Part shown: piece after piece, positions 33,360 to 53,909 of the stretch
Layout of the letters: each line of letters begins with the position of its first letter
Position numbering within the stretch: the first letter of the stretch is position 1
The notes under the pieces: model-generated
What the model was told of the DNA's origin: nothing
Database searches by the model: none
The model's input: the letters and a program-made list of their open reading frames with translations, nothing else
Program-made: the position numbers and the translations under genes
Assembly (NCBI RefSeq): GCF_021800405.1
Contig: NZ_CP084550.1
Location: 372,001 to 436,000, forward strand
Direction of reading: 5' to 3'
Origin: Arthrobacter sp. FW306-07-I
GTDB taxonomy: Bacteria; Actinomycetota; Actinomycetes; Actinomycetales; Micrococcaceae
Length of the DNA: 64,000 nt

Positions 33360-34732
33360 CCTTTTCGCACACAGACGCAGGAACCAGCGAGGCCGCCTGG
33401 GCTGCCAGCGGCCTGTCCGCAATGCCCGAGCTGCCGCTCGATCCCACTGAGTTGGCGGCCATGCGCTTTATCGTGCTCGCGGCACATCCCGACGACGAAA
33501 CACTCGGCGCCGGAGGGTTCATGGCCTCGCTGGTGGCATTGGGGGCCAAGGTGGAAGTCCTGCTCTGCACCGCGGGGGAGGGGTCACACCCGGATTCACC
33601 CACCACCACTCCCGAACAGCTGGCGCAGGTCCGGCTGGCTGAGTTTTCACAAGCCCTCACAGTCCTCGGGTTGAAGAATCACTGGACGTTCCTCGACCTG
33701 CCGGACCGCGGGCTTGCCGGGCAGTCAGAAACGATCGCCCGCGCTGTCCGCGACTCTGCGCGGCGGCTGCGCGGTGCAGCCCAACCGTTGGTCCTCGTTG
33801 CGCCGTACCGGGCAGACGGGCACGGGGACCATGACGCGGTAGGCGCGGTGGCCGCGGAGGTAGCCCGGGAGGATGGGCACGCGCTGCTGGAATATCCCAT
33901 CTGGTTCTGGCATTGGGCGACCACCCAGGACCAGGAGTGGCGGGGCTGGGCCCGGTACCACCTGGCCGAATCCGCTCGCCAAGCCAAAGGGCGGGCCATG
34001 GCTGAGCACACAACACAGGTGCGGCCGCTATCACCGCTGCGCGGGGACGAAACACTGCTCAGCAAAGAATTCCTGGAGCACTTCTCGCGCAGCTTCGAGG
34101 TGTTTGCCTGGACACCCCCGGTAAATACCTCGGAACAGATGCACTCCAGCAGTGATGCCGAGGTGGTCTTTGACAGGGTCCACGACGGCTCCACAGATCC
34201 GTGGAACTACACCCGAAGCTGGTACGAGCGCCGCAAACGGGCACTCACCCTTGCCGCACTTCCCGATGCTTCCTACGAAAACGGCCTGGAAGTGGGGTGT
34301 TCCATCGGAACCCTTACGGCCGAGCTGGCCGCCCGGTGCCGAAACCTGCTGGCCGTGGACGCCAGTGGGTCCGCGGTGCGGCAAGCCGGGCAGTTGCTGG
34401 AGGGCAGCCCCGGTGTCCAGGTGGAACAGCGCATCCTCCCGGGCGACTGGCCGAAGGATAACTATGACCTGGTGGTGGTTTCCGAAGTGGGCTACTACCT
34501 GGCGCCTGGGGAACTCGCCGCACTGTGGGACCGGGTGGAGGCGTCCCTGAAACCGGGGGGAACCCTGCTCCTGTGCCATTGGCGGCACCCGATCAGCGGC
34601 TGGGAACTCGACGGCGACACAGTCCATTCGCTGGCCCGGCAGAGGTTGGGCTGGCGAACGGCAGGGCTCTACCAGGAACGCGACTTTGTGCTGGAAGTCT
34701 TGATTGCCCCCGGACAGAAGGCACCGGCATGA
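33353..34732 (+). CDS. PIG-L deacetylase fused to a SAM methyltransferase
   Basis: A 459-residue fusion. Residues about 38-220 are a PIG-L/LmbE domain: VLAAHPDDETLGAGGFM binds zinc, and PYRADGHGDHDAVG holds the later His residues; such enzymes deacetylate N-acetylglucosaminyl compounds. Residues about 265-455 are a class I methyltransferase (NodS-like): ENGLEVGCSIGTLTAELAAR, LAVDASGSAVRQA, YDLVVVSEVGYYL. Fusion implies sequential N-deacetylation and methylation of one sugar (inference). It overlaps its neighbours by 7 and 4 bases. Confidence 0.88.
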   Translation: MVTFSHTDAGTSEAAWAASGLSAMPELPLDPTELAAMRFIVLAAHPDDETLGAGGFMASLVALGAKVEVLLCTAGEGSHPDSPTTTPEQLAQVRLAEFSQALTVLGLKNHWTFLDLPDRGLAGQSETIARAVRDSARRLRGAAQPLVLVAPYRADGHGDHDAVGAVAAEVAREDGHALLEYPIWFWHWATTQDQEWRGWARYHLAESARQAKGRAMAEHTTQVRPLSPLRGDETLLSKEFLEHFSRSFEVFAWTPPVNTSEQMHSSSDAEVVFDRVHDGSTDPWNYTRSWYERRKRALTLAALPDASYENGLEVGCSIGTLTAELAARCRNLLAVDASGSAVRQAGQLLEGSPGVQVEQRILPGDWPKDNYDLVVVSEVGYYLAPGELAALWDRVEASLKPGGTLLLCHWRHPISGWELDGDTVHSLARQRLGWRTAGLYQERDFVLEVLIAPGQKAPA

Positions 34733-40560: not shown

Positions 40561-41601
40561 CTAAGGCTTGCGCGGCTTCAGGACGGGGGAAGGGGCTGCC
40601 CCTTCCCCCGTTCCCATGCCCTGGAGGAGTTCCTTGACGGCGTCGATGGAGGACACCTGCGGTTCCCACCCCAGGATGCGCCGGGCCCGGCTGGTGTCCA
40701 TGATGGGTGCGCCGGCGGCCATCCCCACCCAGCCTGAATCGGTGGGCTGGATCCTTGCCCGCCACGTCAGGTCCACCACCGCGTGGAGCAGCCGCATGGG
40801 GATGGGCAATATTCTCTTCGCCCCGAGGATGCGGGCCAGTTCCTGGGGATTCAGGACGGGCTCTGCGGCGATGTTGAAGGCGCCACTGGCCCGCTGGTCC
40901 ACGGCCCGCCAGTAAGCCTCTGCGACGTCGTCCGCATGAACTGCCTGGAAAACCAGGTTGTCCGGGGCCGGCAGCAGCGGGAGCCAAGGTTTCCACGGGA
41001 CGAGCCGCGGAAAAATGTGCCCAAGGAAGTACCTGCCGATCTCACTTCCCGCCCGGCCCTGGAAAATGAGGCCCGGCCGGAGCCGGGCCACCGAAACGTC
41101 CGGATGTGCGGCGGCGAATTCATCCAGCAGTTTTTCCTGCTCGGCTTTGTGCCGGCTGTAGTGGGAGCCTGCCATTCCGGTTGCCGGCCAGGACTCGTCC
41201 CTGCGCGGCTCCTTGCTTGACTTGCTGTAGGCGCCCACGGAGGACGCGCAGACAACCTGCTTCACGCCTGCCCTGCCGGCAGCTTCCAGCGCGTTCTTCG
41301 TGCCGGTGACATTGGTCCGGTGCAGGAGGTCCAGGTTGTGGTTCGGCTGGATTTGCCACGCCAGGTGGACCACTGCGTCAACGCCCGCGAGGGCCTTTTC
41401 CAGCTTCTGCCCGTCCTGCTCCAGACCCACGTCCAGGGTGTGCCACTCCACGCCGGCGTAGGGCGCCAGTGAGGTGTCGGGGAGCCTGCGGCTGATGCCC
41501 ACAAGCTGCAGGCTGCCGGGCTTCCGGGCGAGTTGGCCCTGCAGGTTGCGCAGCAGTGCTGTTCCGGCGTTTCCGCTTGCTCCGGTGATGGCGATGCGCA
41601 T
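40561..41601 (-). CDS. NAD-dependent epimerase/dehydratase family protein
   Basis: A 346-residue extended SDR. The dinucleotide loop is ITGASGNAGTALLRNL; VHLAWQIQPNHNLDLLHRTN and CASSVGAYS precede the active-site tyrosine-lysine in HYSRHKAEQEK; VHADDVAEAYWRA is a later family motif. The substrate is unknown. It is transcribed away from the sigma-factor and heptose genes. An HldD-type epimerase role cannot be excluded, but nothing specific supports it. Confidence 0.82.
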   Translation of the reverse strand: MRIAITGASGNAGTALLRNLQGQLARKPGSLQLVGISRRLPDTSLAPYAGVEWHTLDVGLEQDGQKLEKALAGVDAVVHLAWQIQPNHNLDLLHRTNVTGTKNALEAAGRAGVKQVVCASSVGAYSKSSKEPRRDESWPATGMAGSHYSRHKAEQEKLLDEFAAAHPDVSVARLRPGLIFQGRAGSEIGRYFLGHIFPRLVPWKPWLPLLPAPDNLVFQAVHADDVAEAYWRAVDQRASGAFNIAAEPVLNPQELARILGAKRILPIPMRLLHAVVDLTWRARIQPTDSGWVGMAAGAPIMDTSRARRILGWEPQVSSIDAVKELLQGMGTGEGAAPSPVLKPRKP

Positions 41602-41748: not shown

Positions 41749-42705
41749 ATGCCCGAATCCTTTGCCGCACTTGCCATGGATGCTGCGCCTGTCCATCGCC
41801 AACAGCCGGAACCGGCACAACAACAAAGTCCTCCCGCCACTTCAGGGCGGCTGCGGGAGACATTCGAAAACGACCTGGTCCTGCGCTACCTGGACCTCGC
41901 CGAAGCCCTCGCTGCGCGGTTTGAAGCCCGCGGGAGGGAACGCGCAGACCTGAACCAGGTGGCCTACCTGGGCCTGGTGAAAGCGGCCCGCGGCTTTGAC
42001 CAGGCCAAGGGCGAAAGTTTCCCCGCCTATGCCGCTCCCACCATCACGGGGGAACTCAAGAGGTACCTCCGGGACCGGACGTGGGTTGTTCGCCCGCCGC
42101 GCCATATCCAGGACCTGAGGACCCGGCTGTTCCGGGCGGAGCCCGAGCTGACCCAGTCGTTGGGCCGGAACCCCAGCGTTGCGGAACTGGCCGGCGAGCT
42201 GGGGACTGATCCCGCGGAAGTGCAGGAAGCGATTTCGGCGTCGAGCAGCATGCATCCGGATTCCCTGGACGCGGTGAACCCGAACTCCGACGCACCCTCC
42301 ATCGGAGAAGTGCTGGCATGCCCGGACACGCCACTCGAGCGGCTTGAGGAACTGGCATGCCTGCGGGACGCCATGCAGGACCTGGACGACTCGGACCGCG
42401 AGCTTTTGTACCGGCGCTACTTCTGCGAGGAAACGCAGGTGCAGCTGGGGAAGCGGTTGGGGATGTCCCAGATGCAGGTATCCCGACGCCTGGCGAAGGT
42501 GCTGGTGGAACTGCAGCGGCGCTTGGAGACAAGCGCCCAGTTCTCCCGGCCTGAGGACATGGCCGGCAATGTAACCTCAACCCACGCCGGGCAAGCCGGC
42601 GGTATGGGCAGTCCGGTTGCGCCGTTCCGCCAGGCCCGGAACGCAGGGCACCAGGGCATTGCCCGCACTGGCGGCCGCCGCCTCGGCGGCACGCGGACCC
42701 GGTAG
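41749..42705 (+). CDS. Sigma-70 family factor, SigB/SigF type
   Basis: A 318-residue alternative sigma factor. Region 2 is visible as DLNQVAYLGLVKAARGFDQAKG then FPAYAAPTITGELKRYLRDR (core and -10 binding); region 3 spans AEPELTQSLGRNPSVAELAGEL; region 4 has QVQLGKRLGMSQMQVSRRLA, the -35-binding HTH. The C-terminal 50 residues (after about 265) are a Gly/Arg-rich extension. The type controls general stress genes. No anti-sigma (RsbW) or antagonist gene is adjacent, which is unusual for this class. Confidence 0.9.
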   Translation: MPESFAALAMDAAPVHRQQPEPAQQQSPPATSGRLRETFENDLVLRYLDLAEALAARFEARGRERADLNQVAYLGLVKAARGFDQAKGESFPAYAAPTITGELKRYLRDRTWVVRPPRHIQDLRTRLFRAEPELTQSLGRNPSVAELAGELGTDPAEVQEAISASSSMHPDSLDAVNPNSDAPSIGEVLACPDTPLERLEELACLRDAMQDLDDSDRELLYRRYFCEETQVQLGKRLGMSQMQVSRRLAKVLVELQRRLETSAQFSRPEDMAGNVTSTHAGQAGGMGSPVAPFRQARNAGHQGIARTGGRRLGGTRTR

Positions 42706-43015
42706 CAGGGGATCAGGTGGCAGCAGTCCCCCCAGCACGCCCTCGGGAGTGTGGCCATGGCGGAATTTCCGGCGACAGTGGGTTTCTGAGGACAGTGCAC
42801 TTTCTGGGGACAGAGCAGCTTGTTACGACGGCGGTACGCCGTTTCGAAGGCGCCGGTGCGGGCCTGGGCGGAAAGGCTGGAAGAGCCCTGAAAGGAGCAA
42901 CCGCAGCGCCCCAATCCCTATCTTGCCTGTTCAAACGGGTATCAGAACAAGCCTCTACAGCCGAAAAAGCCTGCGGCGCTGTTTAGGAGCAGGAGCAGGA
43001 GGGAACAGGTTGTTT
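42706..43015. other. Gene-free leader before the heptose cluster
   Basis: This interval should hold the promoter of the heptose cluster. It contains a 17-18-base direct repeat: GACAGTGGGTTTCTGAG (42774-42790) and GACAGTGCACTTTCTGG (42791-42807), then GGACAGAG. GGGTAT at 42939-42944 has no matching GTTT at the right distance. No protein gene is supported. Confidence 0.5.
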
Positions 43016-43552
43016 ATGGGAAGCTCTGAAACCTCCAAGCTCCGGGCTGTCCTGTTCGACCGGGACGGGACCCTGGTGGTCGATGTGCCCTACAACGGGG
43101 ACCCCGGCAAAGTACGGCCCATGGCCGGCGCCAAGGCTGTGCTGGACAGCCTGCGGGCGGACGGCATTGCCACCGGCGTGATCAGCAACCAGTCGGGCAT
43201 TGCCCGCGGGCTGATTACGGCCGAGGACGTGGCAAAGGTCAATGCACGCGTGGAAGAACTGCTGGGACCGTTCGACGTGTGGGAGGTCTGTCCGCATGCC
43301 GAACAGGATGGCTGCGACTGCCGCAAACCTGCTCCCGGGATGGTGCACAGCGCCTGCCGCAAACTTGGTATCACAGAATCCGAAGCCGCCCTGATCGGGG
43401 ACATCGGTGCCGACGTGGGTGCCGCGGAAGCGGCAGGGGCCACCGGAGTACTGGTGCCCACCCCCGTGACACGCGTCGAAGAGGTAGCCGCTGCGCGGCT
43501 GGTCGCCCCTGATCTTGCCTCCGCCGTCGGACTGCTGCAGGGGACCGCCTGA
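43016..43552 (+). CDS. GmhB-like HAD-IIIA phosphatase
   Basis: A 178-residue phosphatase resembling D-glycero-D-manno-heptose-1,7-bisphosphate 7-phosphatase. Motif I is LFDRDGTLVVDVPY, motif II is VISNQSGIARG, and the zinc loop CPHAEQDGCDCRKPAPGM is diagnostic of the GmhB/HisB-N group; LIGDIGADVGAAEAAG closes the active site. It opens the cluster. GGAGG is rather far from ATG 43016, and a TTG at 43010 is a possible alternative start. Its stop overlaps the GT9 start by 1 base. Confidence 0.85.
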   Translation: MGSSETSKLRAVLFDRDGTLVVDVPYNGDPGKVRPMAGAKAVLDSLRADGIATGVISNQSGIARGLITAEDVAKVNARVEELLGPFDVWEVCPHAEQDGCDCRKPAPGMVHSACRKLGITESEAALIGDIGADVGAAEAAGATGVLVPTPVTRVEEVAAARLVAPDLASAVGLLQGTA

Positions 43553-44640
43553 TGGGGCGCGTCCTGGTGGCCCGGCTGGACAGCATGGGCGACGTCCTGC
43601 TGGCCGGTCCCGCTGTCCGGGCAGTGGCAAACGGGCGGGCACAGTACGGCGGCAGCACCAACCACGTGGTCATGCTGTGCGGCCGGCAGGGTGAAGCTGC
43701 GGCCGCGATGCTCCCCGGGGCCGCAGAGGTCTACAGCTGGGACAGCCCCTGGATCATGAACCCGGCGCCCAGGATGACCGGCCCGCATGCCGACCGGCTG
43801 ATCGAATATGTCCGCAATTCCCGGATCACCGAAGCCGTCATCCTTACGTCCTTCCACCAGTCACCGTTGCCGCTGGCGCTGTTGCTTCGGCTGGCCGGAG
43901 TGGAGCGCATCACGGGGGCCTCAACTGACTACGCAGGTTCACTGCTGGACGTACGCCTCAAGCCCGGTGAGGACTTTCCGGAAGACCAACCCGAGGCGGA
44001 ACGGGCGCTGGGCATTGCCGAGGCCGCCGGTTTCCGGCTGCCAGCCGGGGACGACGGGAAGCTGCACGTCGACTCCGTCCCCGACGTAACCGACCTGGTA
44101 GGCGACGAGCCCTACGTTGTGGTCCACCCCGGAGCGGCCGTCCCCGCAAGGGCGTGGCCCCCGCTGCACCATGCAGCCGCCGTCGAACTCCTCCAGGGCG
44201 CTGGGTACCGCGTGGTGGTGACCGGCGGCCCGGCGGAAAAGTCATTGACCGCCACGGTGGCCGGCCCCTCGGCCCTGGACCTGGGCGGACGCACCGATCT
44301 TTCCACTATGGCTGGCGTGATGGCCGGCGCCGATGCCGTGGTCAGCGGCAACACCGGGCCTGCCCACCTGGCAGCTGCGGTGGGAACCCCCGTGGCATGC
44401 CTGTTTTCCCCCGTGGTCCCGGCCATCCGCTGGGCGCCCTACGGCGTGCCCCTGGAACTCCTCGGGGACCAGAACGCCCCCTGCCGCATGTCCCGCGCCC
44501 GGGTTTGCCCCGTCCTCGGCCACCCCTGCCTCGACTCGGTCCCGCCGGAAGAAGTGGTGGCCGCGGTGGAGCGCCTGATCAGCGGGGTGAGCTCCTTCAG
44601 CACCCATGTGAGTACCCGTAGAAAGGCCCGCAACAGATGA
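43552..44640 (+). CDS. Glycosyltransferase family 9 (heptosyltransferase-like)
   Basis: A 362-residue GT-B enzyme of the ADP-heptose:LPS heptosyltransferase family. The N-terminus VLVARLDSMGDVLLAGPAVRA matches WaaC/WaaF-type enzymes; PYVVVHPGAAVPARAWP and AVVSGNTGPAHLAAAVGTP are the sugar-nucleotide-binding motifs. In LPS-containing bacteria these add heptose from ADP-heptose; here no LPS is expected, so the acceptor is unknown. Translationally coupled to the phosphatase and, by ATGA, to the next gene. Confidence 0.88.
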   Translation: MGRVLVARLDSMGDVLLAGPAVRAVANGRAQYGGSTNHVVMLCGRQGEAAAAMLPGAAEVYSWDSPWIMNPAPRMTGPHADRLIEYVRNSRITEAVILTSFHQSPLPLALLLRLAGVERITGASTDYAGSLLDVRLKPGEDFPEDQPEAERALGIAEAAGFRLPAGDDGKLHVDSVPDVTDLVGDEPYVVVHPGAAVPARAWPPLHHAAAVELLQGAGYRVVVTGGPAEKSLTATVAGPSALDLGGRTDLSTMAGVMAGADAVVSGNTGPAHLAAAVGTPVACLFSPVVPAIRWAPYGVPLELLGDQNAPCRMSRARVCPVLGHPCLDSVPPEEVVAAVERLISGVSSFSTHVSTRRKARNR

Positions 44641-45671
44641 GAATCCTGCTCTGGCATGTTCACGGTTCCTGGACGGACGCGTTTGTCCGCGGCCGTCATG
44701 AGTACCTGCTCCCCGTCCTGCCCGAACGTGGGGCCTGGGGACTGGGCCGCGCCGGGAGGGACTGGCCGGACTCCGCGCGGGAGGTGGATCTGGCGACGCT
44801 CGACGCCGACGCCGTGGACGCCGTCGTCCTCCAGCGGCCCGAAGAGATCGACGAAGTGGTCCGCACGCTGGGGCGCATGCCCGGCGTCGACCTTCCGGCC
44901 GTGTTCGTCGAACACAACACCCCCAAGGGCAACTTCCCGAACATCAGCCATCCGCTCGCTGGCCAAAACAGCATCCCCGTTGTCCACGTGACCCATTTCA
45001 ACCGGTTGGCCTGGGACAACGGCTCCGCTCCCACCACCGTGATCGAGCACGGCATCCCCGACCCGGGGCAGCTCTACACCGGCGAGCTGCCCGAACTGGG
45101 CGTCGTGATCAACGAACCCGTCCGCCGCGGCCGCGTTACTGGTACGGACCTGTTGCCCGCCTTTGCCTCTGTGGCACCGCTGCAGGTGTTCGGCATGAAG
45201 ACGGACGGACTGGCCGAAGCCACCGGAATCGAACCTTCACTGCTGACAGCCCGGGGCGACCTGAAAACCGTTGAGCTGCACCGGGAACTGGCCCGCTGCC
45301 GGGTCTACGTCCATCCGATGCGCTGGACCTCGCTGGGCCTGTCCCTCCTGGAAGCCATGCATCTGGGCATGCCGGTGGTGGTGCTGGCGGCCACGGAGGC
45401 CCCCCGGGCGGTGCCGCAGGAAGCCGGCATTGTTTCCGCGGACGTCGACGAACTGCTCCGCTGCGCAGCGCGGCTGGTTGCCAATCCGGATGAAGCCCGA
45501 CGGCGGGGACTTGCCGCCCGTGAGGCGGCGCTGGAGCGTTACGGCCTGGGCAAGTTCCAGGACCGCTGGGATGAGCTCCTGGCGGACCTGCGGACCCAGC
45601 CCCGGCACTCCGACAACGGACGTCCGGACGAGCGGATCCTCGTTCCGGCGCGGGAGAGGAAGACCCCATGA
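44637..45671 (+). CDS. GT-B glycosyltransferase
   Basis: A 344-residue glycosyltransferase, GT4-like. The N-terminus MRILLWHVHGSWTDAFVRG is a GT-B start. AVFVEHNTPKGNFPN and TVIEHGIPDP are in the middle, and VYVHPMRWTSLGLSLLEAMHLGMPVV is the EX7E-type nucleotide-binding region. Donor and acceptor cannot be read. ATGA overlaps on both sides place it firmly inside the operon. Confidence 0.85.
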   Translation: MRILLWHVHGSWTDAFVRGRHEYLLPVLPERGAWGLGRAGRDWPDSAREVDLATLDADAVDAVVLQRPEEIDEVVRTLGRMPGVDLPAVFVEHNTPKGNFPNISHPLAGQNSIPVVHVTHFNRLAWDNGSAPTTVIEHGIPDPGQLYTGELPELGVVINEPVRRGRVTGTDLLPAFASVAPLQVFGMKTDGLAEATGIEPSLLTARGDLKTVELHRELARCRVYVHPMRWTSLGLSLLEAMHLGMPVVVLAATEAPRAVPQEAGIVSADVDELLRCAARLVANPDEARRRGLAAREAALERYGLGKFQDRWDELLADLRTQPRHSDNGRPDERILVPARERKTP

Positions 45672-46942
45672 AGATCGCCATGATTTCCGAGCACGCCAGT
45701 CCGCTGGCGGCACTTGGAGGGGTGGATGCCGGCGGACAGAACGTGCACGTTGCCGCGCTGTCGGAAGCCCTTGCCAAGCGGGGCCACCACGTCACCGTCT
45801 ATACGCGAAGGGACGGAACGGAGCTCCCCGGGAGGGTGCGGGTGGGACGGCGCCTCGAGGTGGTCCACGTCGACGCCGGCCCTGCCCGGCACGTGCCCAA
45901 GGACGAGTTGCTGCCCTACATGGGCGAACTCGCTGACGGTGTGGCCGCCGACTGGGGCCAGCGGCCGCCGGACGTGGTGCACGGGCACTTCTGGATGTCC
46001 GGCCTTGCCGCCCTCGACGCGGCCCGCCGGCCGGACACCAATTACCGGGTGCCAATGCTGCAGACCTTCCACGCGCTGGGAACCGTCAAGCGCAGGCACC
46101 AGGGTGCCGAGGACACCAGCCCCGAGGCGCGCCGCTGGCTGGAACCAGGGGTGGGCCGCTCTGCGGACCGGATTATCGCCACCTGTTCGGACGAGGTTTT
46201 CGAGCTCAAGGCCATGGGCATCGCCACCGGCAAGATCTCCATCGCGCCCTGCGGTGTGGATCTTGGCTTCTTCTCACCGGAGGGTCCGGCCGCCGCGCGG
46301 AAGCGCCGCTACCGGATCCTGTCCGTAGGGCGGCTGGTGCCCCGCAAGGGCGTGGACCTGGTCATCCGTTCGCTCCCGTACCTCAAGGCGGCCGGATTCG
46401 AGGACGTCGAACTCCTGATCGTGGGCGGCGGCGACTCGAACGGGATGCACGCCGACCCGGAAATCCGCCGCCTCATGGACCTTGCGGCCCAGCTTGGCGT
46501 ATCGGAGCAGGTAACCCTGCAGGGCCAGGTGTCCCGGGCTGAAATGCCCGGCATCTTCCGCAGCGCCGACGCCGTCGTGTGCGCACCCTGGTACGAGCCC
46601 TTCGGCATCGTCCCGCTGGAGGCCATGGCCTGCGGTGTGCCCGTGGTGGCAGCCGCGGTGGGCGGTCTCCGGGACACGGTGGTGGACCATGCCACGGGCC
46701 TGCATGTGCCGCCCAAGGACCCTGAAGCCATTGCGTCGGCCCTGTCGCTGCTTCTGGAAAACCCCGACCTCAGGGCCAAGCTCGGCCAGGCCGGCGAGCG
46801 CCGGGCCCGCACCCGCTACTCCTGGGACCGGGTGGCAGCGGAAACCGAAAAGGCCTACCAGTTGGCCGTGGCCGGCGTCCAGAAAAGCGCCCAGGCGGGC
46901 GCTCCGGCCGGGATCGTACCGATGGAAGGAGCCGCACTGTGA
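45668..46942 (+). CDS. Glycosyltransferase family 4
   Basis: A 424-residue GT4. It starts MKIAMISEHASPLAALGGVD with the DAGGQNVHVAAL motif shared with sucrose-phosphate-synthase and MshA-type enzymes. VHGHFWMSGLAAL, ILSVGRLVPRKGVDLVI and WYEPFGIVPLEAMACGVPVVA (EX7E) follow. It probably uses a nucleotide sugar, possibly the heptose nucleotide made by its neighbours (inference). Coupled by 4-base overlaps to both neighbours. Confidence 0.88.
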   Translation: MKIAMISEHASPLAALGGVDAGGQNVHVAALSEALAKRGHHVTVYTRRDGTELPGRVRVGRRLEVVHVDAGPARHVPKDELLPYMGELADGVAADWGQRPPDVVHGHFWMSGLAALDAARRPDTNYRVPMLQTFHALGTVKRRHQGAEDTSPEARRWLEPGVGRSADRIIATCSDEVFELKAMGIATGKISIAPCGVDLGFFSPEGPAAARKRRYRILSVGRLVPRKGVDLVIRSLPYLKAAGFEDVELLIVGGGDSNGMHADPEIRRLMDLAAQLGVSEQVTLQGQVSRAEMPGIFRSADAVVCAPWYEPFGIVPLEAMACGVPVVAAAVGGLRDTVVDHATGLHVPPKDPEAIASALSLLLENPDLRAKLGQAGERRARTRYSWDRVAAETEKAYQLAVAGVQKSAQAGAPAGIVPMEGAAL

Positions 46943-47664
46943 CTGCCGAATCATCCCTGCGTGAATCAAGCCTGCGCGAAGCAGACCTCCGCACACTGAT
47001 GGTGCCGCCGGCGCTGCCTGCGGTGCTCCCGGGAGCCACGTTCGTGGACCCCGCCAGTGCGGACGCCGTCCGAACCCACCTGGACAACGTGCTTCCGGCA
47101 CTCGAATCGCTGCGCAGCCAGTCCGGCCGGCTTGCCGCCTGGGGTGTGGAGCTGGCCCAGCGCCTGCTTCGCGGGCATCGGCTCCTGGCGGCAGGAAACG
47201 GCGGCTCGGCCGCGGAGGCGCAGCACCTGACCGCCGAATTGGTGGGGCGGTTCGACTCCGAGCGGGTGCCCTTCTCCGCAATTTCCCTGCATGCCGAGTC
47301 GTCCGCCGTCACCGCGATCGCCAACGACTACGGGTACGACGACGTCTTTGCCCGGCAGGTGCGGGCGCACGGCCGTTCGGGCGACGTGCTGATGCTGCTG
47401 TCCACCAGCGGCAAGAGCCCCAACCTGCTGCGGGCTGCGGAAGCTGCCTCCCGCCTCAACGTGACCACCTGGGCGCTTACCGGCTCCGGACCCAACCCCT
47501 TGTCCGAGGCCTGCGACGAGGCGGTCATGGTTGACGCCTTGAACGCCAATGCCCAGGAAGGGCACCTGATCGCGCTGCACGCCGTGTGCCGCGCCTTCGA
47601 CCTTGAGGTGGCCCGGCACACTCCCTCCCTGACCACCGCGGTGGCAAACGGTGGCCTGCGATGA
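46939..47664 (+). CDS. GmhA-like sedoheptulose-7-phosphate isomerase (SIS domain)
   Basis: A 241-residue SIS protein. LLAAGNGGSAAEAQHLTAEL and VGRFDSERVPFSAISL are diagnostic of GmhA, which turns sedoheptulose-7-phosphate into heptose-7-phosphate. LMLLSTSGKSPNLLRAAE is the phosphate-binding SIS loop, and NAQEGHLIALHAVC carries the C-terminal metal/active-site His. About 50 extra N-terminal residues contain a short repeat (ESSLRESSLREADLR). GTG start in a GTGA overlap. Confidence 0.88.
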   Translation: MTAESSLRESSLREADLRTLMVPPALPAVLPGATFVDPASADAVRTHLDNVLPALESLRSQSGRLAAWGVELAQRLLRGHRLLAAGNGGSAAEAQHLTAELVGRFDSERVPFSAISLHAESSAVTAIANDYGYDDVFARQVRAHGRSGDVLMLLSTSGKSPNLLRAAEAASRLNVTTWALTGSGPNPLSEACDEAVMVDALNANAQEGHLIALHAVCRAFDLEVARHTPSLTTAVANGGLR

Positions 47665-49067
47665 GGATCGTTGTGGTGGGCGACGTGATGCTCGACGTCG
47701 ACCTTTCCGGTGAGGCAACCCGGCTCAGCCCTGATGCCCCCGTCCCCGTGGTGGACGTCTCGGGCGTCCGCCGCCGTGCCGGCGGTGCGGGCCTGGTGGC
47801 GCGCATGCTGGCGCAGGACGGCTGGCCAGTCACCCTGGTGACGGTCCTGGGGAATGACGACGCCGGCAGCCAGCTGCGTGCACAGCTCGCCGGGGTGCGG
47901 CTCGTGGCGGGGAACAGCGGCCACCCTTCGCCGGTCAAGACCCGGGTCCGGGCAGGTTCCCATCCGGTGGTCCGTTTCGACCAGGGCTGTGAGAAGACCC
48001 CGGTCCCCGACGTCAGCCCCGCCATGCTCCGTGCCGTGGAGAAAGCCGGCGTGGTCATCGTTGCCGATTACGGCAGGGGCCTGGCGGCCAACCCGCAGCT
48101 GCGGGACCTGCTCGCACGGCTCGCCGGCACCGTGCCCATCATCTGGGATCCGCACCCCTCCGGGCCCGAACCCGTGCCGGGCATCGCCGTCGTGACTCCG
48201 AACATTTCCGAAGCCACCAAGGCCGTGCAGTCCGGAGCCGGCGGCGTGCCCGACTCCGATGACCCCGCGGCAGCCGTAGCGGAGGTCCTGCTGCAGCGTT
48301 GGCGCAGCCAGGCCGTCCTGGTGACGAAGGGCGAGGAGGGGGCCGTCCTGCTGCAGCAGGGAGAAGCCGCTTCCCATGCCGTTCCCGCGCCGCGCGTGGA
48401 AGCGGGCGACCCGTGCGGCGCCGGCGACCGGTTGGCGGCCAGCCTTGCAGTGCACCTCCTGGCCGGACGCGACCTGCCGGAAGCGGCCGCCCTGGCAGTC
48501 CATGACGCTGCGGATTTCCTGGCGGCAGGGGGAGTCTCGGCATTGCCGGAGACCGATGAACCCGATGCTGCCGCCGGTAGTCCCAGGCCCACGCCGGCCC
48601 CGGCCCGGCGAACCACCGAGCCGCTGCTGCTTGCCCGCTCGGTGCGCGAAAGCGGCGGAAAGGTGGTGGCTACGGGTGGTTGCTTCGACCTGATCCACGC
48701 GGGCCACATCCGGTCCCTCGCAGCAGCCCGGGAGCTGGGGGACTGCCTCATCGTCTGCCTGAACTCCGATGACTCGGTGCGGCGGCTCAAGGGCCCGGAG
48801 CGCCCCATCATTGGCCAGCACGACAGGGCGGAACTGCTTCTGGCCATGGAATGCGTGGACGCCGTGATGGTCTTCGATGAGGACACCCCCGAGGCCGCGC
48901 TGGATCGGCTCCGCCCCGATATCTGGGTCAAGGGCGGCGACTACAAAGGCGCCCGCCTCCCCGAGGCGGACCTGGTGGAAAGCTGGGGCGGCCGCTGCCT
49001 TACCGTCCCCTTCCACCCCGCCCGCTCCACGACAGGCTTGGCGGACGCACTCGCCAAGGTCAGCTGA
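47661..49067 (+). CDS. HldE-like bifunctional heptose kinase/nucleotidyltransferase 1
   Basis: A 468-residue two-domain protein. Residues 1-300 are a PfkB kinase (VVGDVMLDVD, RLSPDAPVPVVDV, DPCGAGDRLAASLAV with the GAGD loop), as in heptose-7-phosphate kinases. Residues about 335-465 are a nucleotidyltransferase (ATGGCFDLIHAGHIRSLAAA with the HxGH motif, NSDDSVRRLKGPERPI, WVKGGDYKGA). Expected product: ADP-heptose or another NDP-heptose. The kinase lacks the usual GGAANVA glycines (RRAGGAGLVARML instead), so specificity may differ. Confidence 0.87.
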   Translation: MRIVVVGDVMLDVDLSGEATRLSPDAPVPVVDVSGVRRRAGGAGLVARMLAQDGWPVTLVTVLGNDDAGSQLRAQLAGVRLVAGNSGHPSPVKTRVRAGSHPVVRFDQGCEKTPVPDVSPAMLRAVEKAGVVIVADYGRGLAANPQLRDLLARLAGTVPIIWDPHPSGPEPVPGIAVVTPNISEATKAVQSGAGGVPDSDDPAAAVAEVLLQRWRSQAVLVTKGEEGAVLLQQGEAASHAVPAPRVEAGDPCGAGDRLAASLAVHLLAGRDLPEAAALAVHDAADFLAAGGVSALPETDEPDAAAGSPRPTPAPARRTTEPLLLARSVRESGGKVVATGGCFDLIHAGHIRSLAAARELGDCLIVCLNSDDSVRRLKGPERPIIGQHDRAELLLAMECVDAVMVFDEDTPEAALDRLRPDIWVKGGDYKGARLPEADLVESWGGRCLTVPFHPARSTTGLADALAKVS

Positions 49068-49110
49068 TCCGCTACTTCGCAAACTTGTTTTCCCCATTGA
49101 AAGGAACACC

Positions 49111-49827
49111 ATGACTGCAGAACCAACTGCAACTGCCTCCACCACGCCCGGCCGCGTCCTGGTAACGGGAGGTGCCTCCGGACTGGGGGCCGCCGTCGTC
49201 GACGCTGTCCTCCGTTCAGGCGGCACCCCGGTGGTCCTGGACCGCGACATCAGCAGCGTCTCCGGCGTGAAGGCGTTCGAAGTGGATGTGGCGGACCGCG
49301 CCGCGGTGGAGCACGCTGTCCGGGAAGCCGCCGAGACCTTGGGCGGCCTGGACGCGGTGGTCACCGCTGCCGGGATTGACCGCTGCGGCAAGCTGGCCGA
49401 CGTCGAAGCCACCGAATGGGAAAAGGTCATCGGGGTCAACCTGATGGGCACCGTTTCCACCGTGCGCGCGGCGCTGCCCTACCTTAAGGAAAGCCACGGC
49501 CGGGTAGTCACCGTCGCTTCAACCCTGGGCAAGCGCGCCGTGGCCGATGCCACCGCCTACTGCGCCTCCAAGTTCGGCGTTGTGGGCTTCAGCCACGCGC
49601 TCGCTGCGGAAACCGGTGGCGAAATCGGCGTGACCACCATGATCCCCGGCGGCATGAAGACGCGCTTCTTCGATGACCGGACGGAGCAGTACAAGCCGCA
49701 GGACGATTCCCGGCTCAACGACCCCGCCAACACTGCGCAGGCCATCCTGTTCGCCCTCAACCAGCCAACGGGCTGCGAGGTCCGCGAAATGCTGATCTGC
49801 CACGAGGAAGAAGGCTCCTGGCCCTAA
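49111..49827 (+). CDS. Classical short-chain dehydrogenase/reductase
   Basis: A 238-residue SDR. VLVTGGASGLGAAVVDAVL binds NAD(P); VTAAGI replaces the usual NNAG; the active site is TVASTLGKRAVADATAYCASK (Ser, then YxxxK). GEIGVTTMIPGGMKTRFFDD follows. It does not have the extended HldD epimerase form. AAAGGAA precedes ATG 49111; an upstream extension of the frame lies in the previous gene. Position suggests oxidation or reduction of a heptose-derived intermediate (inference). Confidence 0.85.
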   Translation: MTAEPTATASTTPGRVLVTGGASGLGAAVVDAVLRSGGTPVVLDRDISSVSGVKAFEVDVADRAAVEHAVREAAETLGGLDAVVTAAGIDRCGKLADVEATEWEKVIGVNLMGTVSTVRAALPYLKESHGRVVTVASTLGKRAVADATAYCASKFGVVGFSHALAAETGGEIGVTTMIPGGMKTRFFDDRTEQYKPQDDSRLNDPANTAQAILFALNQPTGCEVREMLICHEEEGSWP

Positions 49828-49847
49828 GCCGGAACAGGCCGAACCAC

Positions 49848-49882
49848 TGCTGTGGCCGCACGCACCTGGTGCGGCCACAGCA
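49848..49882 (+). repeat. Perfect hairpin between the SDR and ALDH genes
   Basis: TGCTGTGGCCGCAC (49848-49861) and GTGCGGCCACAGCA (49869-49882) form a perfect 14-base stem with a 7-base loop. No T tract follows, so it may stabilise or attenuate the operon mRNA rather than end it. Confidence 0.65.
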
Positions 49883-49930
49883 GGACCACCAGCAGCAACT
49901 CATCCAGCACCGAAAGGCGGGAGGAACACC

Positions 49931-51382
49931 ATGCCCACCACAGCCATCGAAACAACCGCAGGCAATGAAACAGCCCAGGGCGCCGGCGTCACCATCCAGG
50001 ACCCGCGAACCGGGGAGGTGCTTTGGACAGTTCCCGAAGCGGAACCGGACGCAGTGAACGATGCCGTGAGCGTGGCCCGCAGGGCTGCCCCCGGCTGGGC
50101 AGCAACAGCTCCCGCCGAACGCGGTGCAGCCCTCCGTGCCGCCGCCAAGGCGCTCGAAGCAGCTGCACAGGAACTCGCGGGCTTGAACGCCAGCGAAACC
50201 GGACGGCCGGAAGCCGAGGCATTGGCAGGCATCGCCGCCGGTGTCTCCACCCTGGAGCAGTATGCCGAACTGGGCCCGGTCCAGCGCGGCCACAGCCTCC
50301 GCGGCAGCCGGTCAGCCACCGACTACACCATCGCTGAACCGCGCGGGGTGGCAGTCCTGCTGACCCCGTGGAACGACCCCGTAGCCGTAGCCTGCGGACT
50401 CATCGGCGCCGCGCTGGTCACAGGCAACGCGGTGATCCACAAACCCAGTGAGCGCTGCCCGCGCCTGGGCGAGGCGCTGGGCGAGGTCCTGGCCCCGGCC
50501 TTCCCCTCCGGTGTCTTCCTGACCATTTCCGGCGCGGCCGGAGTAGGTGCCGCCCTGTCCCAGGCGGAGGTGGACGTCATTGCCCATGTTGGATCCAGCG
50601 CATCCGGTGCCCGGATAGCCCAGGCAGGAGCCCTCACGGGCGCCCATGTCATCAGGGAAAACGGCGGCAATGACCCGTTGCTGGTGGACCGTGACGTCGA
50701 CCCGGCCTGGGCGGCGGAGCAGGCCGCGATCGGTGCGTTCGCCAACAGCGGGCAGATCTGTACTTCGGTGGAACGGATCTATGTCCACCGCGATATCGCC
50801 AAGGAGTTCTGCAACGCCCTGGAGGCAGAGGCGGCGCTCCGGAACAACAATGGCACCGTGGCACCGCTTGTGGACCTGCGGATGCGGGACGCCGTCCACG
50901 CCCACGTTGCCGATGCCCTGGCGCAGGGCGCGCGCGCCGTCGAGGGCGGCAGCGTGCCGGACGGGCCCGGTTCCTTTTACCCCGCTACGGTCCTGCTGGA
51001 CTGCACCGATGATATGCAGGTCATGGCCGAAGAGACGTTCGGTCCGGTGGCGCCGGTGCAGGTGGTGGACACGTTCGACGACGGCCTGCGCCTGGCCTGC
51101 AGCGGCAGGTACGGCCTGGCCGCCACCGTCCTGAGCGGCAACATCGCACACATCCAGCAGGCAGTGGCCGCGCTGCCCGTGGGAACCGTGAAGGTCAACG
51201 CAGTGTTTGGCGGCGCACCCGGAGGTGCTGCCCAGCCACGCGGAGAGAGCGGTGCCGGGTTCGGCTACGGGCCCGAGCTGCTGGACGAGTTCACCCAGGT
51301 CAAGGTGGTGCACATCGAAGCTCCGCCGGCACCGGCAGGTTCCGGAGCCGGTTCCGTCCCCGAGGAACAGGACCTGCCATGA
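49931..51382 (+). CDS. Aldehyde dehydrogenase family protein
   Basis: A 483-residue NAD(P)-dependent aldehyde dehydrogenase. VAVLLTPWNDPVAVACGLIG, ALVTGNAVIHKPSERCP, the catalytic Glu in VIRENGGNDPLLV and the catalytic Cys in ANSGQICTSVERIYVH are present, as is AEETFGPVAPVQVV. It could oxidise an aldehyde arising in the sugar pathway. It is 103 bases after the SDR and overlaps the second HldE-like gene by 4 bases. Confidence 0.9.
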   Translation: MPTTAIETTAGNETAQGAGVTIQDPRTGEVLWTVPEAEPDAVNDAVSVARRAAPGWAATAPAERGAALRAAAKALEAAAQELAGLNASETGRPEAEALAGIAAGVSTLEQYAELGPVQRGHSLRGSRSATDYTIAEPRGVAVLLTPWNDPVAVACGLIGAALVTGNAVIHKPSERCPRLGEALGEVLAPAFPSGVFLTISGAAGVGAALSQAEVDVIAHVGSSASGARIAQAGALTGAHVIRENGGNDPLLVDRDVDPAWAAEQAAIGAFANSGQICTSVERIYVHRDIAKEFCNALEAEAALRNNNGTVAPLVDLRMRDAVHAHVADALAQGARAVEGGSVPDGPGSFYPATVLLDCTDDMQVMAEETFGPVAPVQVVDTFDDGLRLACSGRYGLAATVLSGNIAHIQQAVAALPVGTVKVNAVFGGAPGGAAQPRGESGAGFGYGPELLDEFTQVKVVHIEAPPAPAGSGAGSVPEEQDLP

Positions 51383-52914
51383 GTGCGTCCCCGGAACATG
51401 CCGATCTCTCCACCCAGCGGGCACTGTCCGACTGGCTGCCCGGCCGGCTGGCCGCGGAGCAGCCTTCGATCCTGGTAATCGGTGACGTCATGCTGGACGG
51501 CTGGTGGAGCGGCAACATTGAACGGCTGTGCCGGGAAGCCCCGGCGCCGGTGGTGGACATCCAGACCCGTGAATCGGTTCCGGGCGGGGCGGCCAACACC
51601 GCCATGAACTTGGCTGCCTTGGGCGCGAAGGTGTCGGTGGCCGGGATCATCGGCGCCGACGACGCCGGTGAGGACCTGCGCGGGCAGCTTGCCGCCGCAG
51701 GCATCGATGTCCAGCACCTGCACACGCACCCGGACATGGTTACCACCACCAAGATCCGGATCAGCAGCGGGGGCCAGGTGATGCTGCGCCTCGACGACTC
51801 GGCCAAAACTGTCCCTGCCGACGCCCTCGCCGCGCTCACCGCGTCGGTGGGTGCCGCCGTCGAACGCCGGGATGCTGTCCTGGTGTGCGACTACGGAACC
51901 GGCGTGGTGGCGGACCCCGTCCGCACAGCTCTTGCCGAGGTCCTTGGCAGCGGCACTGCCGGAACCGACCGTCCGCTCGTGGTGGTTGACGCGCATGACC
52001 CCCGCCCGTGGGCCGCCCTGCAGCCCGACCTGGTGACCCCGAATGCGCAGGAGGCCGCGCAGCTGCTGGACCGGAAACTGCCGGAAGGCCAGGAACGGGT
52101 GGACGCGGTGGGTGCCGAGGCTGCAACGTTGCTCCAGGGAACCGGCGCGCGCGCCGTGGTGGTCACGCTGGACCGGGACGGCACCGTGCTGTTGACGTCC
52201 GACGGCGTGCGGCACCGCACGTGGGCACGGCCGGCAGCCGAGAAACAGGCATCCGGGGCGGGCGATACCTTTGTGGCGGCCCTGACCTTGGCCCGCGCAG
52301 CCGGGCTGCCGCTGACCGCCAGCCTGGACCTCGCCCAATCGGCTGCCGACGTGGTGGTGCACCAGCCCGGCACCTCCGTGTGCAGCACCGCCCAGCTCAG
52401 CCGGTATCTGGAGGCTTTCGCGGACACGGCGCTAAGCGCGGATGAGCTGGAGCGGCAGATGGAGCTGCACCGGGCCCAGGGCCAGCGGATCGTGTTGACC
52501 AACGGCTGCTTCGACGTGCTGCACAGCGGTCACACCCGCTACCTGAACCAGGCCAAACAGCTGGGTGACGTCCTGGTGGTGGCCCTGAACAGCGACGACT
52601 CCGTGCGCCGGCTCAAGGGTGCCGGCCGGCCCATCAACAACGAGGTGGACCGGGCAGCGGTGGTGGCGGCCCTCAGCTGCGTGGACTACGTGACGGTGTT
52701 CGACACCCCTACGGCCACGCCGCTGATCCGCAGGCTCCGGCCTGAGGTGTACGCCAAGGGCGGGGACTACACCCCCGAAATGCTGGAAGAGACACCGGCC
52801 GTGGAGGAGTATGGCGGCCGGGTGGCCATCCTGGACTATGTGGCAGAGCGGTCCACCACGGCCGTGGTGAACCGGATCCGGGACGGCAAGGGGGCAGCCA
52901 GCCCGGTCAACTAG
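51379..52914 (+). CDS. HldE-like bifunctional heptose kinase/nucleotidyltransferase 2
   Basis: A 511-residue paralogue with both domains intact. The kinase (about 30-335) has VIGDVMLDGWWSGNIERLCR, APAPVVDIQTRESVPGGAAN (the conserved glycine pair) and KQASGAGDTFVAALTLA. The nucleotidyltransferase (about 370-500) has VLTNGCFDVLHSGHTRYLNQ, NSDDSVRRLKGAGRPI and VYAKGGDYTPEML. It is closer to canonical HldE/RfaE than the copy at 47661 in its kinase glycines. Two such enzymes in one operon is unusual. Confidence 0.88.
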   Translation: MSASPEHADLSTQRALSDWLPGRLAAEQPSILVIGDVMLDGWWSGNIERLCREAPAPVVDIQTRESVPGGAANTAMNLAALGAKVSVAGIIGADDAGEDLRGQLAAAGIDVQHLHTHPDMVTTTKIRISSGGQVMLRLDDSAKTVPADALAALTASVGAAVERRDAVLVCDYGTGVVADPVRTALAEVLGSGTAGTDRPLVVVDAHDPRPWAALQPDLVTPNAQEAAQLLDRKLPEGQERVDAVGAEAATLLQGTGARAVVVTLDRDGTVLLTSDGVRHRTWARPAAEKQASGAGDTFVAALTLARAAGLPLTASLDLAQSAADVVVHQPGTSVCSTAQLSRYLEAFADTALSADELERQMELHRAQGQRIVLTNGCFDVLHSGHTRYLNQAKQLGDVLVVALNSDDSVRRLKGAGRPINNEVDRAAVVAALSCVDYVTVFDTPTATPLIRRLRPEVYAKGGDYTPEMLEETPAVEEYGGRVAILDYVAERSTTAVVNRIRDGKGAASPVN

Positions 52915-52946: not shown

Positions 52947-53909
52947 ATGGGCAAACGCGGAAAGTCAGGCGGCCGGGGCCGGCCCGCACCGGGAGTGGTG
53001 GAGGTGCCCAAGGGTGCTGCCCCCACTGGTCCGGTGGAGGGTGTCTATTACATCGATACCGGTGACTGCGAGCTGGTGGCGGACCAGGACAATTCCACCG
53101 GTTGGCTCCTGAAGATCAACGGCGTCATGAGCTCACACATCGACCTGGCTGATCCGCTGTTCCTGGACTTCGAGTACATGCGGTGGATGGCGGCGCTCAT
53201 CGAGTCGCGGTGGCCGCCGTCGTCCGCTGCCGGTTCCCCTGCCGGGGGCGGCCACAAACTCCGTGGGCTGCATCTGGGCGGTGGCGCCTGCTCCATGGCG
53301 CGCTACTTCTCCGCTGCCTACCCGGACGCCCGGCAGGTGGTGGTGGAACTGGACGGGAAGCTGGCGGAGTACGTGCGCGGGTGGTTCGACCTTCCCAAGG
53401 CGCCTTTGCTGCGGATCCGCGTGGGGGAGGCCCGCGCCGTGACCGAAACCCTCACCGCCCAGACCCGTGACTTCATCATCCGGGACGTCTTTGCTGGCGC
53501 CCATACCCCGCGCCCGCTGACCACGGCGGAGTTCACTGCCCACGCCAAGCGGGTCCTGGCGCCGGGCGGCCTGTACGTGGCCAACTCCGGCGATGCCCCG
53601 GACCTCAGGAACGCACGGGAGGATGCCGCCACCATCGCGGCCGCGTTCAAGCACACGGTGATCATCGCCGACCCCGCCATGCTGAAGGGCAGGCGCTACG
53701 GGAACATGGTGATGGCCGGCAGCGACGTGCCCTTCGGCGACGACCCCCAGCTGCGCCGCCGGCTCCTGGGCGGTGCCGTCCCCGCGCACCTTTGGGACGA
53801 CGCCCAGGTGCGGGCGTTCGCCGCCGGCACGCCGGTCCGCCACGACCCCGTCCCGCCCCCACCGATTAATCCCCACCGGCCCCCTGACCTCACAAGTTCG
53901 GCCAGGTAA
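52947..53909 (+). CDS. Spermidine synthase-like protein
   Basis: A 320-residue protein with a polyamine-synthase-type methyltransferase fold: GLHLGGGACSMARYFSAAYP is the nucleotide loop, VVVELDGKLAEYVRGWF the acidic strand, and FIIRDVFAGAHTPRPLTTAE follows. The catalytic site of true spermidine synthases is not clearly kept, so activity is uncertain. It starts 33 bases after the heptose cluster and may be on its transcript. The C-terminus is Pro-rich. Confidence 0.75.
   Translation: MGKRGKSGGRGRPAPGVVEVPKGAAPTGPVEGVYYIDTGDCELVADQDNSTGWLLKINGVMSSHIDLADPLFLDFEYMRWMAALIESRWPPSSAAGSPAGGGHKLRGLHLGGGACSMARYFSAAYPDARQVVVELDGKLAEYVRGWFDLPKAPLLRIRVGEARAVTETLTAQTRDFIIRDVFAGAHTPRPLTTAEFTAHAKRVLAPGGLYVANSGDAPDLRNAREDAATIAAAFKHTVIIADPAMLKGRRYGNMVMAGSDVPFGDDPQLRRRLLGGAVPAHLWDDAQVRAFAAGTPVRHDPVPPPPINPHRPPDLTSSAR

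What the first reader, a model, noticed from the sequence alone, without database searches (positions are those of the whole stretch)
43016..52914. Nine-gene heptose-nucleotide and glycosyltransfer cluster in a Gram-positive background
The sequence shows, in one direction and mostly with 1-4-base overlaps: GmhB-like phosphatase, GT9 heptosyltransferase-like enzyme, two GT-B transferases, GmhA-like isomerase, two HldE-like kinase/nucleotidyltransferases, an SDR and an aldehyde dehydrogenase. Known use of this pathway is ADP-heptose for Gram-negative LPS, GDP-heptose for some S-layer glycans, and ADP-heptose in streptomycete septacidin and hygromycin B biosynthesis. None of these contexts is evident here. 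Inference: the cluster makes a heptose-containing (possibly oxidised) surface glycan, glycolipid or small molecule.
Basis: partly seen in the sequence, partly recalled or inferred. Interest (0 to 1): 0.9.

Follow-up and report, generated by a model that had tools for sequence, protein, structure and literature searches.

The report
Actinobacterial heptose cluster with linked sigma
A soil Arthrobacter relative carries a widely shared set of genes predicted to make an activated seven-carbon sugar and attach it to something, apparently switched on by a regulator encoded next door; it is a variant of a Streptomyces cell-wall-stress operon whose product is still unknown.

Summary
In detail: nine co-directional genes (43016-52914) encode GmhB-, GT9-, GT-B-, GT4-, GmhA-, HldE-, SDR-, ALDH- and HldE-like proteins. 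The heptose inference is reasonable. The claim that no known context exists is not: the core resembles, gene for gene, the partly sigmaE-dependent Streptomyces cwg ("cell wall glycan") operon. What is new is the variant. (1) HldE1 and HldE2 are separate lineages; HldE2 usually comes with ALDH and a further transferase (GT9d), while cwg's carbamoyltransferase, epimerase and GT2s are missing. (2) GT9c and GT9d lie 1.82 Mb away in the window's genome; GT9d is still co-inherited with the cluster (38 of 39 genus genomes with it, 0 of 22 without). (3) A SigB/F-like sigma gene lies within 4 kb in 39 of 39 cluster-bearing genus genomes (and in 3 of 22 without). (4) A promoter-like dyad GTTTA-N15-GGGAA just before gmhB tops an unbiased count (43 of 74 upstream regions; shuffles 3-4). 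No cluster protein looks polytopic and no flippase, polymerase or ligase is in the cluster, so "surface glycan" stays an inference. Sugar, product and regulation are untested.

The parts
41749..42705 (+). SigB/SigF-like sigma factor, predicted regulator of the cluster
   Evidence: Sigma70 r2/r3/r4; TIGR02980 217.5 bits, cut-off 234.35; 2.5-3.9 kb from GTB in 39 of 39 cluster-bearing genus genomes, also in 3 of 22 without
42981..43006 (+). promoter-like dyad GTTTAG-N14-AGGGAAC, ending 9 nt before the gmhB start (possible leaderless transcript)
43016..43552 (+). GmhB-like HAD phosphatase
43552..44640 (+). GT9a, core heptosyltransferase-like enzyme (Asn at the DxG position)
   Evidence: PF01075 82.1 bits
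44637..45671 (+). GTB, GT-B glycosyltransferase typical of this cluster kind
   Evidence: model mean pLDDT 84.8
45668..46942 (+). MshA-like GT4 glycosyltransferase
   Evidence: TIGR03449 253.2 bits, cut-off 462.5
46939..47664 (+). GmhA-like phosphoheptose isomerase
   Evidence: 133.7 bits to 1tk9
47661..49067 (+). HldE1: kinase plus nucleotidyltransferase of the cwg lineage, Leu in place of the pocket Asn
49111..49827 (+). classical SDR oxidoreductase
49931..51382 (+). aldehyde dehydrogenase; Cys and Glu aligned with betaine-aldehyde dehydrogenase
51379..52914 (+). HldE2: kinase plus nucleotidyltransferase of a separate lineage, GGAAN pocket kept

Best explanation
This is a two-module variant of the actinobacterial cwg-type heptose cluster. 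Inferred chemistry: GmhA isomerises sedoheptulose-7-phosphate, the HldE kinase makes the 1,7-bisphosphate, GmhB removes the 7-phosphate, and the HldE nucleotidyltransferase makes NDP-heptose (ADP-heptose, perhaps also CDP/UDP). GT9a, GT9c and GT9d, with the two GT-B/GT4 enzymes, then build a heptose-containing glycoconjugate in the cytosol, most likely for the cell envelope. SDR and ALDH oxidise a sugar or intermediate at an unknown step. HldE2, usually with ALDH and GT9d, is an added second module that may supply a second activated heptose. A linked SigB/F-type sigma factor is predicted to drive the operon from the promoter just before gmhB. Shown: gene content, order, homology, conservation, co-inheritance and the motif. 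Inferred: every reaction, the product, its location and the regulation.
For: Family hits; solved relatives by sequence: heptose-7-phosphate kinase 4e84, putative cytidylyltransferase 5x9q, phosphoheptose isomerase 1tk9, heptose bisphosphatase 4pnh. Core order as in Streptomyces L200 and L212, which fits the published cwg list. HldE1 of twin clusters is one clade and HldE2 another. GT9d is its own clade. Of 78 twin loci with the hldE1-hldE2 stretch visible, 58 hold ALDH and 56 GT9d between them; none of 26 carbamoyltransferase loci is twin. In 61 genus genomes GTB and HldE2 occur in the same 39; GT9d in 38 of them and 0 of 22 others although unlinked in 20; sigma in 39 of 39 and 3 of 22. Dyad GTTTA-15-GGGAA in 43 of 74 non-redundant regions upstream of stand-alone gmhB; maximum 3-4 in 10 shuffles. 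Arg before STT in both window HldEs (sequences; motif from PMC11461863).
Against: No cluster protein looks polytopic, and no initiating enzyme, flippase, polymerase or ligase is in the cluster or in the two Streptomyces operons scanned; this weakens 'surface glycan'. HldE1 has Leu at the pocket position where HldE2 has Asn (80 of 80 against 87 of 87), and GT9a has Asn where GT9b/c mostly have Asp, so HldE1 and GT9a may use another sugar. The window HldEs fit the published (F/L)XXGXSTT motif only loosely. Cwg's carbamoyltransferase, epimerase and GT2s are missing. Three genomes keep the sigma gene without the cluster. Of 75 twin loci with enough upstream sequence, 9 have sigma without a recognised motif, 10 motif without a detected sigma, 12 neither. 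GT9d occurs without a visible hldE2 in 5 loci, 3 of them apparently cut by the stretch end.
Confidence: 0.6

Rival explanations
1. The cluster makes a small diffusible or intracellular heptoside (antibiotic-like, signal or protectant) rather than a wall polymer; all steps are cytosolic and export uses a general system.
For: No cluster protein looks polytopic and no polymer machinery is in the cluster. Few transferases suit a short oligosaccharide. NDP-heptose feeds septacidin in Streptomyces (stated in PMC11461863).
Against: Conserved in many genera. The Streptomyces relative is induced by vancomycin (PMC6767563 passages). No transporter or resistance gene is part of the conserved set seen.
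Confidence: 0.25
2. The enzymes act on a different sugar phosphate: the GmhA/HldE/GmhB-like proteins form a related pathway to a non-heptose or differently configured NDP-sugar.
For: Leu at the pocket position in 80 of 80 HldE1 of twin clusters; Asn at the DxG position of GT9a (118 of 122); most proteins lie below equivalog cut-offs.
Against: GmhA, GmhB and a bifunctional HldE occur together in most loci mapped. HldE2 keeps the pocket Asn in 87 of 87 and the GAGD Asp is invariant in all three groups.
Confidence: 0.15
3. The GTTTAG/GGGAAC element is not a sigma-factor promoter but an operator or a translation-initiation feature of gmhB.
For: Its 3' half is purine-rich and close to the start codon; sigma and motif do not coincide in every locus.
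Against: Fixed dyad over an unconserved spacer; GTTT/GGGWA resembles SigB/SigF promoters (recalled consensus); associated with the sigma gene over 113 de-duplicated loci (both 47, sigma only 11, motif only 13, neither 42; Fisher 7e-10, not corrected for kinship).
Confidence: 0.2

Closest known systems
Streptomyces coelicolor cwg operon (SCO6179-6190), partly sigmaE-dependent, predicted cell wall glycan synthesis
   Same: Core gmhB-GT9-GTB-GT4-gmhA-hldE in the same order in Streptomyces loci L200 and L212, with sequence relatives of each; their GT9b falls in one clade with GT9c; control by an alternative sigma factor known there, predicted here
   Different: Window form lacks epimerase, carbamoyltransferase and GT2s; has SDR, ALDH, HldE2 and GT9d; its linked sigma is SigB/F-like, not the ECF factor sigmaE
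ADP-heptose pathway of Gram-negative LPS (GmhA, HldE, GmhB, HldD, WaaC/F)
   Same: GmhA, bifunctional HldE, GmhB and GT9 families
   Different: No HldD-type epimerase in the cluster; two HldEs; GT9a with Asn at the DxG position; a Gram-positive host
NDP-heptose biosynthetic enzymes across kingdoms (Tang et al. 2024, seen only through the commentary PMC11461863)
   Same: Bifunctional kinase/nucleotidyltransferase; Arg before STT, said to allow CDP/UDP-heptose
   Different: The Arg is common in HldE1 (97% of 80) but not in HldE2 (Arg 36%, His 40% of 87); motif fit is loose
GDP-heptose pathway (HddA/HddC; recalled)
   Same: GmhA and GmhB families
   Different: Window kinase and nucleotidyltransferase hit HldE models; no separate GDP-type nucleotidyltransferase in the cluster

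Membership tests
cwg-type operon | core gmhB-GT9-GTB-GT4-gmhA-hldE in this order | tested here: met
   the S. coelicolor list was matched by gene number and annotation only
cwg-type operon | carbamoyltransferase, NDP-sugar epimerase and GT2 in the operon | tested here: not met
   absent from the window cluster; present in L200 and L212
cwg-type operon | control by the ECF factor sigmaE | not testable with these tools
   linked sigma is SigB/F-like; no expression data
ADP-heptose pathway (HldE type) | phosphoheptose isomerase | tested here: met
   below the equivalog cut-off
ADP-heptose pathway (HldE type) | heptose-7-phosphate kinase with catalytic Asp and sugar pocket | tested here: inconclusive
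   GAGD Asp invariant in all groups; pocket Asn kept in HldE2, Leu in HldE1
ADP-heptose pathway (HldE type) | 7-phosphatase GmhB | tested here: met
   PRK08942 105.6 bits, cut-off 178
ADP-heptose pathway (HldE type) | heptose-1-phosphate nucleotidyltransferase | tested here: met
   TIGR02199 180.3 and 192.9, cut-off 181.5 (HldE1 183.5); HxGH, KGGDY and STT motifs
ADP-heptose pathway (HldE type) | HldD 6-epimerase | tested here: not met
   the cluster SDR is classical, 238 aa; HldD model not among its 25 families shown of 204, nor among the 16 listed for the epimerase-like 40561-41601; rest of the genome not searched
SigB/SigF sigma family | sigma regions 2, 3 and 4 with SigBFG profile | tested here: inconclusive
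   TIGR02980 is the best family, 217.5 bits, cut-off 234.35
Wzx/Wzy or ABC-type surface polysaccharide locus | initiating transferase, flippase/polymerase or exporter in the locus | tested here: not met
   genome outside the window not searched

The most novel reading that the evidence does not exclude
The cell makes two distinct activated heptoses in one pathway: HldE1 with GT9a uses an altered sugar or nucleotide, and HldE2 with GT9d supplies a second. Both feed one stress-induced envelope glycoconjugate governed by a private SigB/F-type sigma factor whose main target is this operon.
Probability: 0.35. Interest if true: 0.75.

Novelty: new variant of a known kind. Interest (0 to 1): 0.6.

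Why it matters
ADP-heptose is best known from Gram-negative LPS, and NDP-heptoses activate the ALPK1 innate receptor (PMC11461863). A conserved heptose system in common soil actinobacteria, related to a Streptomyces vancomycin-induced operon of unknown product, makes an open question testable: what does cwg make? The Arthrobacter-type variant, with a predicted sigma factor and promoter of its own and a culturable host group, offers a simpler place to find out.

Tried and rejected
Rejected: chance ORFs. Rejected: HldE2 as a recent tandem copy of HldE1. Rejected: loss of the extra GT9 genes in the window lineage; they were found 1.82 Mb away. Rejected: a lone GGGTA site 79 nt before gmhB as the promoter; it is not shared by most loci. 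Not upheld as cluster members: SPDS (52947-53909) and the epimerase-like 40561-41601; the first follows the cluster only in near relatives, the second lies on different sides.

Motif as a wide regulon: not supported. A stricter pattern (GGGG, which the window's own site lacks) gave 18 hits in 197 family genomes, 11 at the cluster, against 17 in the control, so away from the cluster it is at or below chance (hits placed by coordinates). A looser one gave 6 hits in the window's genome, 3 in the control.

Led nowhere: the GTB model is confident but the fold search never ran. Paper searches: 14, 15, 25, 33 and 64 returned 2, 0, 2, 0 and 3 papers, none about this cluster by title and abstract; one listed 20 of 86, 77 listed 15 of 323; 32, 39 and 63 (2; 20 of 463; 20 of 30 listed) led to cwg papers, in whose passages I saw cwg only as a predicted glycan operon. 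PMC9608346 has no "heptose" in its main text. Absence from print is claimed only for these searches.

Caveats: genes in other loci were called by my codon-usage script; some starts and splits are wrong (HldE2 of L161 is over-extended). Labels are best profile scores. In one search identical rows were dropped, and some of the 64 "single" HldE1 come from stretches too short or broken to show an hldE2. One search counted sigma on either strand and a few genomes twice; one search is the corrected table. Of 42 sigma matches, 11 span a stop codon, probably past the end of shorter proteins (not checked, but called intact in L229 and L230). The 57-hit count used a pattern chosen; one search is the unbiased one (10 mononucleotide shuffles). 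One search kept the best 80 of 575 matches, a list biased to near kin. Fisher values ignore kinship.
Full report
Observation. Pfam and NCBIfam give a HAD-IIIA/GmhB-like phosphatase, a GT9, a GT-B, an MshA-like GT4, a GmhA-like SIS protein, two PfkB-cytidylyltransferase fusions (HldE-like), a classical SDR and an ALDH. Most scores lie below equivalog cut-offs, so these are divergent members. In the window's HldEs the GAGD, HxGH, KGGDY and STT motifs are kept; the ALDH aligns its Cys and Glu with betaine-aldehyde dehydrogenase (their catalytic role is recalled). The nearest solved relatives by sequence are a heptose-7-phosphate kinase (4e84), a putative cytidylyltransferase (5x9q), phosphoheptose isomerases and heptose bisphosphatases.

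Distribution. An HldE nucleotidyltransferase domain was found in 56 of 197 family genomes at E<=1e-35 (14 of 32 genera; 46 of the 56 with two copies), in 47 of 248 order genomes and in 44 of 346 phylum genomes, both at E<=1e-40. I mapped 60 fetched stretches and 80 named loci, the best of 575 matches to GTB. After removing near-identical ones, 121 loci hold the core GT9. Two main forms appear. Form A (78 loci with the hldE1-hldE2 stretch visible; among others Arthrobacter, Pseudarthrobacter, Paenarthrobacter, Sinomonas, Microbacteriaceae, Brevibacterium, Actinokineospora, Goodfellowiella): gmhB-GT9a-GTB-GT4-gmhA-hldE1-SDR ... hldE2, with ALDH in 58 and reverse-strand GT9d in 56 of the 78 between hldE1 and hldE2, and often a reverse GT9c before gmhB. 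Form B (26 loci): carbamoyltransferase with GT2 and gmhB (often fused), GT9a-GTB-GT4-gmhA (often fused)-hldE, often SDR, and GT9b. No locus is both. Seventeen show neither mark; several are cut short, and Clavibacter and Micromonospora loci look intermediate. The nearest named relatives of the window are Arthrobacter sp. Soil764 and Pseudarthrobacter.

Link to cwg. In Streptomyces loci L200 and L212 form B reads epimerase, carbamoyltransferase, GT2, gmhB, GT9, GTB, GT4, gmhA, hldE, GT9b, GT2, GT2: twelve genes. The S. coelicolor cwg operon SCO6179-6190 also has twelve; in the passage I saw, cwgH (8th) is a phosphoheptose isomerase and cwgI (9th) a bifunctional synthase/transferase, as our order predicts; cwgD (4th), where GmhB should be, is listed as a dehydratase (PMC5839063 passages). 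The operon is induced by vancomycin, partly dependent on sigmaE and "predicted" to make a cell wall glycan (PMC6767563 passages; Hong et al. 2002 not read). I matched order and annotation; I did not have the S. coelicolor sequence.

Two HldE lineages. In a 69-row tree, the 18 HldE1 rows from twin loci form one clade (100/99) inside the cwg HldEs, and 23 of the 25 rows labelled HldE2 form another (100/99); the other two, L099 and L100, group with L094 outside it. The pocket motif GGAAN keeps Asn in 87 of 87 HldE2 but is Leu in 80 of 80 HldE1 of twin loci and in 96% of 64 other HldE1. That this Asn contacts the sugar in PfkB kinases is recalled. The Arg before STT, linked to CDP/UDP use (commentary PMC11461863, section 0 part 1), is present in 97% of twin HldE1, 87% of other HldE1 and 36% of HldE2. 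In Brevibacterium L127 HldE2 has no nucleotidyltransferase match; L184 sits with it on a long branch (its Pfam not run).

The second module. GT9 proteins fall into three groups (67 rows, quick method, SH-aLRT only): core GT9a (29 rows, 96); GT9b and GT9c together (24 rows, 100); GT9d (12 rows, 100; a thirteenth row so labelled, L224, falls elsewhere on a long branch). Its 12 rows come from twin clusters and from L222, where GT9d lies one gene from an HldE2-type gene outside any cwg cluster. The link is not absolute: 22 of 78 twin loci lack GT9d between hldE1 and hldE2 (13 are close kin of the window, where it has moved in the genomes checked), and 5 loci show GT9d without a visible hldE2. In the window's genome GT9d and GT9c lie together 1.82 Mb from the cluster. 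In 61 genus genomes GTB and HldE2 occur in the same 39, and GT9d in 38 of those and 0 of 22 others, though unlinked in 20 of the 38; the one miss, G813, is 90% complete. At the DxG position GT9a has Asn in 118 of 122 (4 without a motif match), GT9b Asp in 17 of 21 (4 without), GT9c Asp in 55 of 66 (2 Val, 9 without); 12 of 13 GT9d printed read (N/D)D(S/T)G.

Regulation. The SigB/F-like sigma gene (41749-42705) matches in 42 of 61 genus genomes: all 39 with GTB, 2.5-3.9 kb away, and 3 of 22 without. In one of the three, G762, sigma and SPDS lie side by side and the cluster is absent between them (L228). It is the best SigB/F match in the window's genome (218.5 bits; next 130). A count of all 5-mer pairs in 74 non-redundant regions upstream of stand-alone gmhB puts GTTTA-15-GGGAA first (43 of 74; at most 3-4 in 10 shuffles). 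Among 55 sites found by a chosen pattern, 49 are 26 nt long and 36 end 9 nt before the called start. Over 113 de-duplicated loci with enough upstream sequence: sigma and motif 47, sigma only 11, motif only 13, neither 42 (Fisher 7e-10, kinship ignored). Genome-wide the motif is not enriched away from the cluster, which fits a narrow regulon.

Against the reading. A simple hydropathy scan gives at most one stretch over threshold per cluster protein, here and in the two Streptomyces operons, and no flippase, polymerase, initiating enzyme or ligase is in the cluster. The product could be a short cytosol-built glycoconjugate or a small molecule. Nothing here shows that heptose is made, what the acceptor is, or what SDR and ALDH do.

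Verdict. The gene set is real and conserved, with a probable sigma factor of its own. It is a two-module variant of a known but unsolved operon type, not a new kind of system.

Noticed in passing
L231:7640-9705 (G000:C1:2236639-2238704): GT9d and GT9c orthologues form a two-gene pair 1.82 Mb from the cluster in the window's genome; GT9d is unlinked in 20 of 38 genus genomes that have it.
   Followed up: yes
L228:6156-7932: Genome G762 keeps the sigma gene and SPDS side by side with the heptose cluster absent between them.
   Followed up: yes
L127:4565-6088: Brevibacterium HldE2 has no recognisable nucleotidyltransferase domain (PfkB only by Pfam).
   Followed up: partly
window 40561-41601: Epimerase-like PF01370 protein, 60% identical to one downstream of hldE2 in L161; it lies on different sides of the cluster in relatives and stays in G762, which lacks the cluster.
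   Followed up: partly
window 52947-53909: Spermidine-synthase-like protein following the cluster in close relatives.
   Followed up: partly
L048, L049, L053, L056: Several kb of other genes between SDR and ALDH/hldE2 in some loci; not annotated.
   Followed up: no
window 33353-34732: Fusion of a PIG-L deacetylase with a NodS-like methyltransferase, possibly part of another small glycan or glycolipid gene set.
   Followed up: no
L223:1825-12134: A cwg-like cluster with carbamoyltransferase whose only HldE (one match in that genome) is of the HldE2 type.
   Followed up: partly
L050, L120, L132 and others: GmhB is fused to a GT2, and in several families GmhA to the GT4, in form B clusters.
   Followed up: partly
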